This document shows positions 15,425 to 21,128 of a stretch of DNA of 38,833 bases, in pieces. The DNA is from Candidatus Daviesbacteria bacterium (lineage in GTDB: Bacteria; Patescibacteriota; Microgenomatia; Daviesbacterales; UBA10151). Numbering within the stretch: position 1 is the first letter of the stretch; each line of letters starts with the position of its first letter. Location of the stretch: positions 1-38,833 of the forward strand of contig JACPEW010000026.1 of the NCBI GenBank assembly GCA_016183305.1, read 5' to 3'. A model generated the notes under the pieces. That model was not told the origin of the DNA, did not search any database, and saw nothing but the letters and a program-made list of their open reading frames with translations. The translations under genes were made by a program, and so were the position numbers.

Positions 15425-16249
15425 ATGACTGATCAGGGTTCTGAGATTTTAAAACAAGCTTTTGGTAGTGAACACGCTCCTTTGACTGAAGAGCAAAGGC
15501 AAACAGCAAGACAAGCTTGTGCTTTTGCTTTAGTTGCTTTTTCATCTCAGTGGGAAGGGGAATGGCTTAATGATTGGTTGCAACAAAGAAATGTTGCCTT
15601 AACACCTGAGCAGATTAATTTTGCTAGAAACTTACGTGAAGTGTTCCCTGAGGCAAGTGAAGTTTTACCAGAATCAGAATTTGACTCTGCTTACAACGGA
15701 TACCGTTCCTTAGCAAGTACTCCAATAGGAGAAATTATACCTGGTCTGCTGCGTGATGCAAATAAAACTCATCCAAACACTCCATACGAGATTGCTACAG
15801 ACTTGATGAGAGAAGATCCAACAGGTGTATCTTATCTACAACGTCTTTTAGCTGACCTTGAGGAAAAATCAACAATAAATTCATCAGCTCTTTGGGGAAG
15901 AGAGAATGAGGTTCGTGCAAGAATTATTGATATTCTGAAAAAAGCAGAAGAAGTTCCCAACGAGCCCAAACCTCAAAAACCCCTGGATGATCAAGATACC
16001 AGTGATACTATTCTTTATGCATTTATGGCAACATTTGGAGGAAATAAAACACAAAGAGATGAATTTGTAGAAAAGTCCCGTGATGCTTTAAGAGAAGAGG
16101 CTCCTTTAGAGTTTAATAAGGAAGGTAAATTACTTTCAACCGATGCCTTGTTCGCCACGGGTGCTAGGTTAGCCTTTGAAAGATGGCAAACAGCGGTTAA
16201 TGTTTATATGAATCGCTGGGGTACTCAAACTCCTAATATTCAACCTTAA
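15425..16249 (+). CDS. Unknown soluble island protein
   Basis: A 274-aa acidic, mostly helical protein without signal peptide, membrane helix or cysteine-based site. It starts MTDQGSEILKQ and contains two helical halves joined by a Pro/Lys linker (about 190-205, EPKPQKPLDDQD). No family is recognised. A TATATT stands about 20 bp upstream without a clear -35. It is a cargo gene flanked by a full 31-bp repeat upstream and a partial one downstream. It has a plausible start and no internal lesion, unlike its neighbours, so it is probably expressed. Confidence 0.65.
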   Translation: MTDQGSEILKQAFGSEHAPLTEEQRQTARQACAFALVAFSSQWEGEWLNDWLQQRNVALTPEQINFARNLREVFPEASEVLPESEFDSAYNGYRSLASTPIGEIIPGLLRDANKTHPNTPYEIATDLMREDPTGVSYLQRLLADLEEKSTINSSALWGRENEVRARIIDILKKAEEVPNEPKPQKPLDDQDTSDTILYAFMATFGGNKTQRDEFVEKSRDALREEAPLEFNKEGKLLSTDALFATGARLAFERWQTAVNVYMNRWGTQTPNIQP

Positions 16250-16344: not shown

Positions 16345-17073
16345 ATGAAACGGTTTGTCTGTTTGTCCTTGCTTTCTATTTTCTTTTTAGCAAATACTAT
16401 ATATAGTCAATCTCCTCAAGAGAATACTCAAGCGGCTACATCTTCTTCTATCCAAAGCGAAATAAATTATTTAAGAAATCAGGTAGAGTCAATTAAAAAA
16501 GACAACTATGATTACTCAATTAAAAGTGCAGAAAACGCAGGGTTGAAAGCCGATAGACTTTTAAATTGGCTTGTGGGAATAGCAACTATTTTTGGAGTAA
16601 TTATTGCTTTAGTAGCTTTTGTGGTAGGTGGAGATCTTGCTGCTAAATTAAGAGAACTCCGTCTTTATGTTAAAGCTGCAAAAAAGAATGCAAGCCTTAT
16701 TGAAACAATTGCAAAAGAAGCTGGAGAGAAAGGCGAGCAGTTAAGTAAAGAGATTAAGGAACTTCAAGATATTAAGAAGAATATAGACAATTCTAAGAGT
16801 AAATCTACAGAACAGGAAATAAAGATTAGCGAGCTGATTAACAAGGCTCAAGGTACTATATCAGAGATACAGTCACTTAATAATTCAGCAACCCTGATTT
16901 CTGGAACAACGATTCCTTATCCTGTTAATTTTGTAAAAACAGTTGACCCGAGGACAACAATTGCTCCTGGTGGTTTTAATGTTTGCAAAAAATGTTTTAG
17001 TTTTTTTAAACCTGGACAAACTCTTTTTGGTAGTTTAACTGGTAACAATGATTATTGTCCAAAATGCGAATAA
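16345..17073 (+). CDS. Membrane protein with coiled coil and C-terminal zinc ribbon
   Basis: A 242-aa protein. It has a signal peptide or first helix (residues 4-22), a Ser/Gln-rich coiled segment, a transmembrane helix (LVGIATIFGVIIALVAFVVG, about 76-95), a long Lys/Glu coiled coil (about 98-180), and a terminal zinc ribbon with CKKC and CPKC pairs flanking a Phe-rich loop. If the signal is cleaved, the coiled coil and ribbon face the cytoplasm. No family is named. The coiled coil and ribbon suggest an assembly or sensing protein; island cargo of unknown role. Confidence 0.65.
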   Translation: MKRFVCLSLLSIFFLANTIYSQSPQENTQAATSSSIQSEINYLRNQVESIKKDNYDYSIKSAENAGLKADRLLNWLVGIATIFGVIIALVAFVVGGDLAAKLRELRLYVKAAKKNASLIETIAKEAGEKGEQLSKEIKELQDIKKNIDNSKSKSTEQEIKISELINKAQGTISEIQSLNNSATLISGTTIPYPVNFVKTVDPRTTIAPGGFNVCKKCFSFFKPGQTLFGSLTGNNDYCPKCE

Positions 17074-17140: not shown

Positions 17141-17674
17141 ATGGATGACCTGCTTGATGATCCATCAAATCCTAACGCCGATAAACCACCTCCTCCTTTT
17201 GGGACTAACTTTAACCCTCATCATGTCCCCACTCCTCCTGATTTATCCAATAACCCTAATACTGTAGACCCTGTCCAATCATGGGTAGCCCAACACCAAG
17301 CCAGGGATGAACATGGAAGGTTTGTTAAATTTGAACACCTTAATGATAGTTACCCAACTACCCATAATGAACCAGATGTTTATCATGCCCAATCTTGCCA
17401 AGCAGTTCCTTCTTCCCAAACTATCCCTAATCAACAATCTCAACCTTCTTCAGTCCTTCCTCCTATCATTGAGATTAACCAAAATACCAAGCCTACAGAC
17501 AAGGAAGATCCTCCATTGTTTGGTTTTTTCCTAACTAACCCTGTTACATATCTAAAGAAGTTTTTAACTAAGTTATTAAAAAGGCAGATGATTGGTATAA
17601 ATGGGTTAAGGAAGATGAAGAAAAAGAAAAACTGTTGCAGCAGGAAAATATCCATAAACTGCAAAAAGATGTAA
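17141..17674 (+). CDS. Pro-rich island protein, apparently 3'-truncated
   Basis: A 177-aa open frame with a low-complexity Pro/Asn/Gln-rich body and the motif ARDEHGRFVKFE (residues 54-65). It then runs into NPVTYLKKFLTKLLK (131-145), which looks like the start of a membrane-proximal domain. After about 17578 the frame becomes a poor basic tail (KMKKKKNCC), while the -1 frame takes up a serine-recombinase-like sequence. The last 30 residues are therefore probably not native: the gene seems fused to recombinase debris. Low-complexity N-termini with an RD..GRF motif occur in hypothetical proteins of this lineage, but the function is unknown. Confidence 0.5.
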   Translation: MDDLLDDPSNPNADKPPPPFGTNFNPHHVPTPPDLSNNPNTVDPVQSWVAQHQARDEHGRFVKFEHLNDSYPTTHNEPDVYHAQSCQAVPSSQTIPNQQSQPSSVLPPIIEINQNTKPTDKEDPPLFGFFLTNPVTYLKKFLTKLLKRQMIGINGLRKMKKKKNCCSRKISINCKKM

Positions 17675-18486: not shown

Positions 18487-18891
18487 TTAATTTATATATC
18501 CATGTTCTTTTAACCAGGGGAAGATAGTCCTCCGGGCTATGGTGGAGATATATTTTTTATCTGAGGAGGTATCAAACCAACCAATTTCTACTATTTCTGA
18601 AGAGGGTTTAGGTTCTCCAATTAGTTTTCCTTCATAAACTTTAATATTAACCATCTCCCCTGCTTTATCATGAGCTATATCCTGAAATGTGGTTAAATAT
18701 TTTAAAGAAGACTCCATAACCTCACAGCCTACTTCTTCCTTTACTTCCCTTCTTAAACACTCTATCTCAGACTCCCCTTCTTCCAGCTTGCCTCCCAGGG
18801 TAAAAAAGACCTCTTTTTGTTTATTAGTCCTTACCTGCAGCATTTTTTTATCTTTAAATACAGCTAAAGCAATTTTTTGTATCACCCTCAC
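18487..18891 (-). CDS. NUDIX hydrolase
   Basis: A 134-aa hydrolase of nucleoside diphosphate-linked compounds. The Nudix box spans residues 34-56, from GKLEEGE to RREVKEEVGC, fitting Gx5Ex7REUxEExGU with the metal-binding Glu residues at 49, 52 and 53. Size is typical of a single-domain MutT-like enzyme. The substrate cannot be read from sequence; oxidised nucleotide cleansing is one possibility. It is divergent from the dehydrogenase gene across 50 bp. Confidence 0.9.
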   Translation of the reverse strand: MRVIQKIALAVFKDKKMLQVRTNKQKEVFFTLGGKLEEGESEIECLRREVKEEVGCEVMESSLKYLTTFQDIAHDKAGEMVNIKVYEGKLIGEPKPSSEIVEIGWFDTSSDKKYISTIARRTIFPWLKEHGYIN

Positions 18892-18941: not shown

Positions 18942-21128
18942 GTGGACTCAAAAGATTTGTTAGTTCCTCTCAATTTAGGTATTGTTGGCTATGGGTTTGT
19001 GGGCCAGGCTGTAGCTAATGGCTTTAATGTTTCCTCAAAAGGCAAGGATATTATCCGCTACTATGATAAATTCAAAGATACTTTATCTTTAGAAGAAGTT
19101 ATTACCAAATCAGAAGTGATAGTAGTAGCCTTGCCTACCCCTATGAGAGAGGATGAATCTGGGATAGATTTAACTATTTTGGAAGAAATGGCAGGGGAGA
19201 TAACTAAATTTACAGATAATACAGATAAGATAATTTTAATTAAATCCACAGTAATCCCAGGCACAACAGCTGCTTTAGAAGAAAAATATCCCAAATCCCA
19301 TTTTGCCTTTAGCCCGGAATTTTTAACAGAGGCTAATTTTTTAGAAGATTTTATCAATGCTGACAGGACCATAATTGGGGCTAGTAATGATTTAGTTTCC
19401 AGAAGGCTGGCTGTTATTTTTAAACAAAGGTTTCCTAAAACAATAATTTTCCAAACAGACCCAACCACAGCAGAAACAGTTAAGTATTTTGCTAATGCTT
19501 ATCTTTCTTTAAAAGTTACTTTTGCTAATTTTATGTATGATTATTGTCAAAAAAAGGGAATTAAGTATGAGGAAGTTAAAAAAATGGCTGCCATAGACCC
19601 AAGGATTATTGATGCTCATTTAGAAGTTACTACTATGAGGGGGTTTGGGGGGAAATGTCTAGCTCCGGAAGAAAGGATATTTGCTTTTAATAGCAGCAAG
19701 CTGAAAGTTATAAGGGCCAAAAATATAAACAATAAGGTAGTTGGAGTTTTGGGATGGAAGGATGGAAAAATCATCAAAGATGATTTGATGATTGCAGGCT
19801 CTAGAAAAGTTGACCATTTGCTTAAGTTCTCTCTTTCTAAAGGCAGGGACCTAACTGTAACATCAGACCATATTATGATCGTTGCTGATAAAGATGGCAA
19901 TTTAAGCCAGAAGGAAGCATTCGAGGTTAAAAAAGATGATTATATCCCTGTAATCTTAGATGGACTTAAAGAACCGCAGGCAAAAGAACATAAAGTAGCT
20001 ATTAAATTATACAAGGAAGTTGATTTATCCAAATATAAAACATTTGTAGAAAATCTGCCTAAATCTCATGCGGGATTGCTAAAACCTTACCTATCTTTTC
20101 ACCAATATAAATCATCTGCCCGTAAAAGAGTATACTCCGTACCTCTTAAAGCCTGTTTGGATGCTGGGATTAATATTGATTCACTGCGGATTAAAACAAA
20201 TAAAACCGGGACTTGGGTTCCAGCAGTTATCCAGGTAAATGAGGATTTTGCCAGACTTGTTGGATACTATTTATCAAAAGGTTGTGTTAGTGATGGCAAG
20301 GTATTTATTTCCTTTTCTTTTTTAGAAAAGGATTTGATCCTAGATGTTAAAAATATCTTACAAAGTTTAAATATCAAATTTAGTATGCAAACACTTTATT
20401 GGCAAGGCCATGAGAACGCAGTTAACATAAAGATTTCCTCTCCCATTTTATCTTCTTATTTTTCAAGCTTTGGCACTAATTCCTCAAATAAAACTATCCC
20501 CTATTTTATTTTTCATTCAAATCAAGCAATTAAAGATAATCTCCTAGCAGGTATCCTAAGAGGAGATGGCTCTATATTTTCTTCCAATATGGGTAATTAC
20601 TGGACTGTTAATTTATCTACTACCAGCCAAATCTTAGCAGAAGGAGTTGATGCTTTACTTAGGGAAAAGGGCATTTTAGCCAATATAGGAACTGTTAAGA
20701 CTGCAAAAACTAAAAGTTATGTTTGGTCATTAGATGTTTCTGAGCGGGAGAGCGTACAAAAGCTTTTATTACTTTTTACTCCCGGACAAAGGTCTAAAGT
20801 TAAAGAGACAGGAATAAGGATAATCAAATCACCTGCTTATTCAAAAATTAGAAATCTTGCTTTACTTAATATTAAAAACATTGAAAATATTCAAAAATCC
20901 AGTCTCGTTTATTCAATAGAAACTAAAAACCATTATTACATTACCTCCTGGGGAATACTAACCCACAACTGTTTTCCAAAAGATTTAGTAGCTTTAATAG
21001 GGGAGTTTAAAAAAGCAGGAGTGGATTCCTCACTTTTGGAAACTATGTGGAAATACAATAAAAAAATCAGAAAAACCCATGATTGGGAAGAGATACCTTT
21101 TGTAGTAGGAAGCAAACCAAAGCATTAG
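18942..21128 (+). CDS. UDP-glucose/GDP-mannose dehydrogenase family protein with intein
   Basis: A 728-aa precursor. The extein (residues 1-238 plus 677-728, 290 aa) begins with the Rossmann motif GIVGYGFVG (13-21) and continues through SPEFLTEANFLEDF (124-137) to RGFGGK, directly joined after splicing to CFPKDL, which rebuilds the family active-site motif GGxCFPKD. The enzyme oxidises a UDP-sugar C6 alcohol to the acid using NAD. At 290 aa it has the NAD-binding and central domains but not the usual C-terminal UDP-binding domain of 430-450 aa members, so it may be a short lineage-specific form or may act on another substrate. The start is GTG, with a strong promoter placing transcription at it. 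Confidence 0.88.
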   Translation: MDSKDLLVPLNLGIVGYGFVGQAVANGFNVSSKGKDIIRYYDKFKDTLSLEEVITKSEVIVVALPTPMREDESGIDLTILEEMAGEITKFTDNTDKIILIKSTVIPGTTAALEEKYPKSHFAFSPEFLTEANFLEDFINADRTIIGASNDLVSRRLAVIFKQRFPKTIIFQTDPTTAETVKYFANAYLSLKVTFANFMYDYCQKKGIKYEEVKKMAAIDPRIIDAHLEVTTMRGFGGKCLAPEERIFAFNSSKLKVIRAKNINNKVVGVLGWKDGKIIKDDLMIAGSRKVDHLLKFSLSKGRDLTVTSDHIMIVADKDGNLSQKEAFEVKKDDYIPVILDGLKEPQAKEHKVAIKLYKEVDLSKYKTFVENLPKSHAGLLKPYLSFHQYKSSARKRVYSVPLKACLDAGINIDSLRIKTNKTGTWVPAVIQVNEDFARLVGYYLSKGCVSDGKVFISFSFLEKDLILDVKNILQSLNIKFSMQTLYWQGHENAVNIKISSPILSSYFSSFGTNSSNKTIPYFIFHSNQAIKDNLLAGILRGDGSIFSSNMGNYWTVNLSTTSQILAEGVDALLREKGILANIGTVKTAKTKSYVWSLDVSERESVQKLLLLFTPGQRSKVKETGIRIIKSPAYSKIRNLALLNIKNIENIQKSSLVYSIETKNHYYITSWGILTHNCFPKDLVALIGEFKKAGVDSSLLETMWKYNKKIRKTHDWEEIPFVVGSKPKH
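19656..20969 (+). mobile_element. Intein (438 aa) with LAGLIDADG domain
   Basis: Residues 239-676 of the precursor. Block A starts with Cys239 (CLAPEERIF). Block B is LTVTSDHIMI with the TxxH set Thr307 and His310. Block F is VYSIETKNHYYITSWGI, and block G ends THN (674-676) before Cys677. All splicing residues (Cys1, TxxH, terminal HN, Cys+1) are present, so splicing should work. Between them is a LAGLIDADG endonuclease with motifs at LVGYYLSKG (439-447) and LLAGILRGDG (534-543). The first motif has Lys where the catalytic Asp belongs. Confidence 0.93.

What the first reader, a model, noticed from the sequence alone, without database searches (positions are those of the whole stretch)
19656..20969. 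Intein at the catalytic cysteine of a UDP-sugar dehydrogenase
The 438-aa insert starts with Cys, ends with His-Asn and precedes Cys677, the active-site nucleophile of GGxCFPKD. The enzyme is inactive until splicing, since its catalytic residue is also the +1 splicing residue. Insertion at the most conserved codons is typical for inteins, but this host family is not a common one.
Basis: partly seen in the sequence, partly recalled or inferred. Interest (0 to 1): 0.72.

Follow-up and report, generated by a model that had tools for sequence, protein, structure and literature searches.

The report
Self-splicing insert in sugar dehydrogenase
A gene for a sugar-modifying enzyme in a tiny-genome bacterium is interrupted, exactly at its active-site cysteine, by a self-removing protein insert (an intein) of a type already known from archaea and other bacteria, here with a homing nuclease that is probably dead.

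Summary
Window 19656-20969 (+) is a 438-codon in-frame intein inside a 728-aa ORF (18942-21128). Removing it joins RGFGGK to CFPKDL; 19 of 20 close intein-free homologues read straight across this join, and the twentieth has unread bases there. All class 1 splicing residues are present (Cys1, TxxH, His-Asn, Cys+1), and the AlphaFold model (pLDDT 93) matches LAGLIDADG-bearing inteins (Z 35). The +1 residue is the dehydrogenase's catalytic cysteine, so the precursor should be inactive until spliced (inferred).
Soucy et al. 2014 list a 'udp' intein allele in UDP-glucose 6-dehydrogenase. A motif scan gave at least 95 complete inteins at this exact site in 17 phyla. The window intein belongs to that allele by HMM score and tree, but is a very divergent member (31% maximum identity). 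It sits in the short (290-aa) dehydrogenase of a Patescibacteria-type genome, and its first LAGLIDADG motif has Lys where 81 of 87 relatives have Glu, so homing is probably lost.
In passing: viral contigs carry this same site split into two genes by a split intein, mostly with a free-standing nuclease-like ORF between. New member of a known kind; interest modest.

The parts
18942..21128 (+). Precursor ORF (728 aa plus stop): NDP-sugar dehydrogenase interrupted by an intein
18942..19655 (+). N-extein, 238 aa: NAD-binding and central domains of the UDP-glucose/GDP-mannose dehydrogenase family, ending RGFGGK
   Evidence: uninterrupted in relatives
19656..20969 (+). Intein, 438 aa (Hint splicing domain with LAGLIDADG homing endonuclease), udp allele
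19656..19682 (+). Splicing block A, CLAPEERIF; Cys1 is the first nucleophile
   Evidence: C1 in 87 of 87 other same-site inteins of at least 320 aa
19860..19871 (+). Splicing block B, T69-S-D-H72 (TxxH)
   Evidence: H72 in 87 of 87, T69 in 84 of 87
20256..20282 (+). First LAGLIDADG motif, LVGYYLSKG; position 208 is Lys instead of the acidic residue
   Evidence: Glu at this position in 81 of 87 relatives
20541..20570 (+). Second LAGLIDADG motif, LLAGILRGDG; acidic residue Asp304 kept
   Evidence: Asp in 84 of 87 relatives
20904..20969 (+). Splicing blocks F and G, LVYSIETKNHYYITSWGILTHN; ends in the His437-Asn438 pair
   Evidence: H and N in 87 of 87; intein_Cterm
20970..21128 (+). C-extein, 52 aa plus stop; first codon (20970-20972) is Cys677, which is both the +1 splicing residue and the catalytic cysteine of GGKCFPKD
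   Evidence: C677 and D681 invariant
18487..18891 (-). Divergent NUDIX-hydrolase gene, a conserved neighbour that marks the dehydrogenase as the local orthologue (context, not part of the intein)
   Evidence: NUDIX 6.3e-12; found beside the dehydrogenase in 12 of 20 relatives

Best explanation
This is a class 1, cis-splicing intein of the known 'udp' allele, inserted immediately before the catalytic cysteine of a short NDP-sugar (probably UDP-glucose-type) dehydrogenase in a Patescibacteria-type genome. The cell makes a 728-aa precursor. Cys1 of the intein attacks the Lys238-Cys239 peptide bond (N-to-S shift). Cys677, the future catalytic cysteine, takes over the N-extein by transthioesterification. 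Asn676, helped by His675, cyclises and releases the 438-aa intein, and an S-to-N shift seals K-C to give a 290-aa enzyme. Until then the catalytic cysteine is held at the intein's C-terminal junction, so the precursor should be inactive. The element arrived as a homing intein that exploits the strongly conserved GGxC/FPKD codons. Its LAGLIDADG endonuclease has since lost one catalytic acid (Lys208), so it probably no longer homes and persists because precise loss is rare. Shown: the boundaries, the intact splicing residues, the fold prediction, allele membership, the intein-free orthologues and the lost acid. Inferred: that it splices, that the precursor is inactive, and that the nuclease is dead.
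For: Boundaries and profile hits. Uninterrupted join in 19 of 20 close homologues; the other is unreadable there. Splicing residues C1, H72, H437 and N438 are in 87 of 87 other same-site inteins of at least 320 aa and T69 in 84 of 87; all are kept in the window. AlphaFold model pLDDT 93, pTM 0.92; VIA-align Z 35.2, 327 residues at 2.5 A rmsd, to the TliVMA intein with homing endonuclease; Foldseek E 5.7e-22. HMM of 83 same-site inteins: window 248 bits, next 120 bits (L087), other-host inteins at most 98 bits. Tree: window with 24 udp inteins, support 98/98. Position 208 is Lys where 81 of 87 have Glu. Host residues PEFL, K181, N185, C677 and D681 are invariant across 30 precursors. No second dehydrogenase copy was matched in the 85%-complete genome.
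Against: The window intein is the most or second most divergent member in every domain (maximum identity 31% over the full length, at most 35% in a domain), and its exact place within the udp group is unsure because of a long branch. Block B has Ile73 where 84 of 87 have Pro. No transcript, protein or splicing data exist. Lys208 rests on one assembly. The precursor model is weak at the junction (pLDDT under 50 at residues 231-237), so it says nothing about precursor activity.
Confidence: 0.92

Rival explanations
1. The intein is decayed: it no longer splices or splices very poorly, and the dehydrogenase is a non-functional gene.
For: Strong divergence from all relatives, a lost endonuclease acid, and another intein in the same genome (FtsH, contig C17) whose reading frame breaks.
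Against: The 728-codon frame is open, every splicing residue is kept, Hint and endonuclease are about equally divergent rather than one collapsing, host catalytic residues are intact, and the model is confident along almost the whole length.
Confidence: 0.05
2. The intein has become a regulatory switch: splicing is slow or redox-sensitive because the +1 thiol is also the catalytic thiol, so enzyme activation is conditional.
For: Insertion exactly at the catalytic cysteine; probably dead endonuclease with intact splicing residues; same-site mini-inteins of 178-205 aa without room for an endonuclease persist in 11 of 95 complete genome examples.
Against: No splicing-rate or redox data; 19 of 20 close homologues lack the intein, so regulation by it is not generally needed; simple retention explains the same facts.
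Confidence: 0.05
3. The same-site inteins of short dehydrogenases (window, Microgenomates L087, viral L166/L167/L173) are one lineage specific to the short host, and resemblance to the udp allele of full-length enzymes is secondary.
For: Same site and same short host type. A tree with all same-site inteins in one clade is not rejected (p-AU 0.096), nor is udp plus L087 (p-AU 0.46).
Against: Window scores 248 bits against the udp profile, L087 120 and the viral ones 41-70; L087's best partners are PHP-domain inteins (116 bits); window plus L087 as a pair is rejected (p-AU 0.003).
Confidence: 0.04

Closest known systems
'udp' intein allele of UDP-glucose 6-dehydrogenase (Soucy et al. 2014, PMC4071816; Halobacteria, Methanocaldococcus jannaschii, Dictyoglomus and others)
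   Same: Same host enzyme family; same-site inteins found here in Halobacteria, a Methanococci MAG and many bacteria form the group in which the window intein falls.
   Different: The window intein is far diverged (31% maximum identity), sits in a short dehydrogenase without the C-terminal domain, and has a substituted endonuclease acid. The insertion site in the paper's own sequences was not read here; identity of site is inferred.
LAGLIDADG inteins with solved structures: TliVMA (7qsu, 7qss), PI-PkoII (2cw7), PI-PfuI (1dq3), PI-SceI (1vde)
   Same: Same Hint plus LAGLIDADG fold over the whole length (Z 35.2 to 20).
   Different: Different hosts and sites; 13-20% sequence identity in the structural alignment.
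354-aa intein at the same site in a short dehydrogenase of Microgenomates group bacterium Gr01-1014_5 (L087 = G207)
   Same: Same host type and same insertion codon.
   Different: Closer to PHP-domain-protein inteins than to the udp allele; pairing with the window intein is rejected.
'Fractured genes' with split inteins and a free-standing endonuclease (Dassa et al. 2009; recalled, the paper is not held)
   Same: Viral dehydrogenase genes found in passing have the same arrangement at this site.
   Different: The window intein is contiguous, not split. Whether that paper includes this host gene could not be checked.

Membership tests
Class 1 intein (protein splicing element) | In-frame insert whose removal restores a conserved protein | tested here: met
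   19 of 20 close homologues read through the join, 1 unreadable
Class 1 intein (protein splicing element) | Cys/Ser at position 1, block B TxxH, C-terminal His-Asn, Cys/Ser/Thr at +1 | tested here: met
Class 1 intein (protein splicing element) | Hint fold | tested here: met
   Predicted model pLDDT 93; Z 35.2 to 7qsu and 16-20 to many splicing-domain structures
Class 1 intein (protein splicing element) | Autocatalytic splicing | not testable with these tools
   Needs expression
udp intein allele | Inserted in UDP-glucose/NDP-sugar dehydrogenase between GGx and CFPKD | tested here: met
   that the published allele uses this very site is inferred, not read in the paper
udp intein allele | Groups with other same-site inteins rather than with inteins of other hosts | tested here: met
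   248 bits against at most 98 for other-host inteins; clade support 98/98
Active LAGLIDADG homing endonuclease | Two LAGLIDADG helices, each with an acidic catalytic residue | tested here: not met
   Motif 1 has Lys208 in place of Glu (81 of 87 relatives have Glu); motif 2 keeps Asp304. The domain is there, but activity is not supported.
UDP-glucose/GDP-mannose dehydrogenase family | NAD-binding and central domains with GGxCxPKD and conserved E/K/N/D | tested here: met
UDP-glucose/GDP-mannose dehydrogenase family | C-terminal UDP-binding domain of full-length members | tested here: not met
   C-extein is 52 aa and no such Pfam domain was hit; open frames of the 18 readable intein-free homologues are also short, 282-348 aa, so this is a trait of the short branch and not caused by the intein

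The most novel reading that the evidence does not exclude
The catalytic-cysteine codon of NDP-sugar dehydrogenases is a recurrent intein trap across cells and viruses, entered by more than one intein lineage in full, mini and split form. In the window's short enzyme an endonuclease-dead udp intein has been kept because splicing, which hands over the same thiol that catalyses the reaction, now serves as an activation step that responds to cell state.
Probability: 0.07. Interest if true: 0.62.

Novelty: new member of a known kind. Interest (0 to 1): 0.3.

Why it matters
It places the udp intein allele in a short dehydrogenase of a tiny-genome bacterium, far from the full-length archaeal and bacterial hosts, and shows that the catalytic-cysteine codon is a widely used insertion site (at least 95 complete cases in a truncated scan). 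Because the splicing +1 residue and the enzyme's nucleophile are one thiol, the system offers a simple test of whether inteins at active sites act as switches or are only hard to lose. The viral split versions at the same site could add new trans-splicing pairs.

Tried and rejected
Rejected: 'rare host'. Rejected: a window-plus-L087 lineage (p-AU 0.003). Not shown: independent invasions by several lineages, because one clade of all same-site inteins is not rejected (p-AU 0.096). Looked for endonuclease-specific decay by comparing domain identities: the window is lowest in Hint and second lowest in the endonuclease and linker, so decay is not confined to the endonuclease. Looked for another intein in the 753-aa dehydrogenase ORF of G027: it is a fusion with an epimerase-like domain (my reading of the sequence), not an intein. 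The precursor model (pLDDT 81) is too weak at the junction to judge activity. The paper search on active-site cysteine and regulation gave nothing relevant in its listing; searches gave no papers. A tblastn of one viral IntC plus C-extein against 50,697 phage records gave no match at 1e-5; its N-fragment matched 86 records, none covering 80% of it.

Correction to my notebook: entry 2 says the NUDIX neighbour was in 13 of 20 relatives; the count is 12 of 20.

Full report
OBSERVATION. The + strand ORF 18942-21128 (GTG start, 728 aa) contains a 438-codon insert at 19656-20969. It begins CLAPEERIF and ends GILTHN; the next codons encode CFPKDL. Pfam finds the NAD-binding and central domains of the UDP-glucose/GDP-mannose dehydrogenase family in the exteins, and LAGLIDADG_3 and Intein_splicing in the insert. 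NCBIfam intein_Nterm begins at residue 1 of the insert and intein_Cterm ends at residue 438.

INTEIN-FREE HOMOLOGUES. A search of 56 related genomes with the joined exteins found a match in 45. Besides the window there are 20 close homologues (62-82% identity). Of these 20, 18 read GFG[GQ]KCFPKD without interruption, 1 reads GFGGKCLPKD and 1 cannot be read because the locus has a run of N there. The closest, in G015, is 82% identical. Twelve of the 20 also have the NUDIX gene beside the dehydrogenase, as in the window, so the interrupted gene is the local orthologue in many relatives. The G015 locus does not show the NUDIX gene. No other dehydrogenase match was found in the window's own genome, which is only 85% complete.

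THE HOST. The spliced protein would be 290 aa and lacks the C-terminal domain of full-length UDP-glucose dehydrogenases. The 18 readable intein-free homologues have open frames of similar size (282-348 aa), so shortness is a trait of this branch. Short dehydrogenases of this kind are also in viruses. Residues PEFL, K181, N185, C677 and D681 are invariant across the 30 precursors aligned; naming them as the catalytic set is from recall. The genome is 0.94 Mb.

HOW COMMON THE SITE IS. I scanned GTDB genomes for DNA encoding H-N-C-F-P-K-D, that is, an intein C-terminus fused to the catalytic motif. Of 119, 95 hold a complete intein starting after G[YFW]GGx, 12 are cut by a contig or locus end, 4 have the C-terminal motif but a broken or odd frame, and 8 lack block F and look like chance. 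The 95 come from 17 named phyla plus 4 unassigned; lengths are 178-495 aa, 11 of them mini-inteins of 178-205 aa. In the window's class, 3 of 373 genomes matched the same pattern: the window, a full-length enzyme in G129, and a short enzyme in G207. The pattern fixes Phe after Cys, so LPKD variants were not counted there. The allele is in print: Soucy et al. list 'udp' in UDP-glucose 6-dehydrogenase with 7 halobacterial, 2 bacterial and 6 other euryarchaeal members (PMC4071816, passages only).

WHICH INTEIN. An HMM of 83 same-site inteins scores the window intein 248 bits, L087 120, and inteins of other hosts (PHP-domain, FtsH, DnaB, RecA, GyrA) 98 down to 27. In a careful tree the window falls with the 24 udp inteins sampled, support 98/98 (24 of 83 were used, and GyrA was left out of the 7 other-host inteins). 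In a larger quick tree of 95 rows the same group has SH-aLRT 95. The window sits on a long branch, so its nearest relative is unsure; best pairwise scores are to a Methanococci MAG (147.8 bits, 31% identity), Omnitrophica and Woesearchaeota. Pairing the window with the Microgenomates short-host intein is rejected (p-AU 0.003), but one clade of all same-site inteins is not (p-AU 0.096), so I do not claim independent invasions as shown.

FOLD AND ACTIVE SITES. The AlphaFold model of the intein has pLDDT 93 and pTM 0.92. It aligns end to end with the TliVMA intein (Z 35.2, 327 residues, 2.5 A) and with PI-PkoII, PI-PfuI and PI-SceI. Cys1, His72, His437 and Asn438 are in all 87 other same-site inteins of at least 320 aa, Thr69 in 84 of 87. 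In the first LAGLIDADG motif the window has Lys208 where 81 of 87 have Glu; the second motif keeps its Asp. Since LAGLIDADG enzymes normally need both acids (general knowledge), double-strand cutting is probably lost. Divergence is general and not confined to the endonuclease.

MECHANISM. Standard class 1 cis-splicing explains everything seen: N-S shift at Cys1, transfer to Cys677, Asn676 cyclisation, S-N shift. Splicing itself, inactivity of the precursor and loss of homing are inferred. The modelled precursor is too uncertain at the junction to add to this.

IN PASSING: SPLIT FORM IN VIRUSES. Three scans of viral contigs for HN-C-[F/L]-PKD gave 26 + 5 + 3 = 34 stretches. By my reading these are 21 short ORFs with an intein C-terminal piece of about 45-60 aa joined to a C-extein, 7 contiguous inteins and 6 chance matches; some contigs are near-duplicates. 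I looked for the N-terminal half in 14 of the 17 split-like loci and found it in 10, and in 1 of the 4. Between the halves, 8 of those 10 have an intact ORF of 239-267 aa with a shared YYPDF...VDIK motif and 2 have fragments of it. Pfam gives the intervening ORF only weak, below-cut-off hits to Phage_endo_I in 2 of 3 tested. The N-half examined in L184 carries intein_Nterm (8.1e-11); that of L175 is weaker (0.015, below the cut-off). This matches the fractured-gene arrangement that I recall from Dassa et al. 2009 (not held). Searches for split inteins with UDP-glucose and inteins with UDP-glucose listed no paper whose listing describes this; absence from the held library is not proof of novelty.

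VERDICT. A real intein, correctly described; a divergent new member of a published allele at a site that is widely used. Interest lies in the short host, the probably dead endonuclease and the shared splicing/catalytic thiol.

Noticed in passing
L168, L170, L175, L176, L177, L183, L184, L186, L187, L188 (viral contigs): Viral dehydrogenase genes split at this same catalytic cysteine into an N-half with an intein N-piece and a C-half with an intein C-piece; 8 of these 10 have an intact nuclease-like ORF (YYPDF...VDIK) in between and 2 have remnants.
   Followed up: partly
L087:2-1960 (-) = G207:C14: A Microgenomates short dehydrogenase with a 354-aa intein at the same codon whose best relatives are PHP-domain-protein inteins, not the udp allele.
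   Followed up: yes
L171, L191 (viral contigs); L048, L060, L068, L085, L099, L128, L138, L146, L152, L154, L159: Mini-inteins of 170-205 aa at the same site, too short to hold a LAGLIDADG domain.
   Followed up: partly
L198 (G000:C9), L200 (G000:C19): The window's genome also has inteins in GyrA and RecA; gene names are my reading of the sequences.
   Followed up: partly
L199:2353-3780 (G000:C17): An FtsH-like gene with an intein much shortened in the endonuclease part and with a broken reading frame at its C-terminal side, so either a decayed intein or an assembly error.
   Followed up: no
window 17141-17674, 16345-17073, 15425-16249: Three ORFs upstream of the NUDIX gene with no Pfam match at 0.001.
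   Followed up: no
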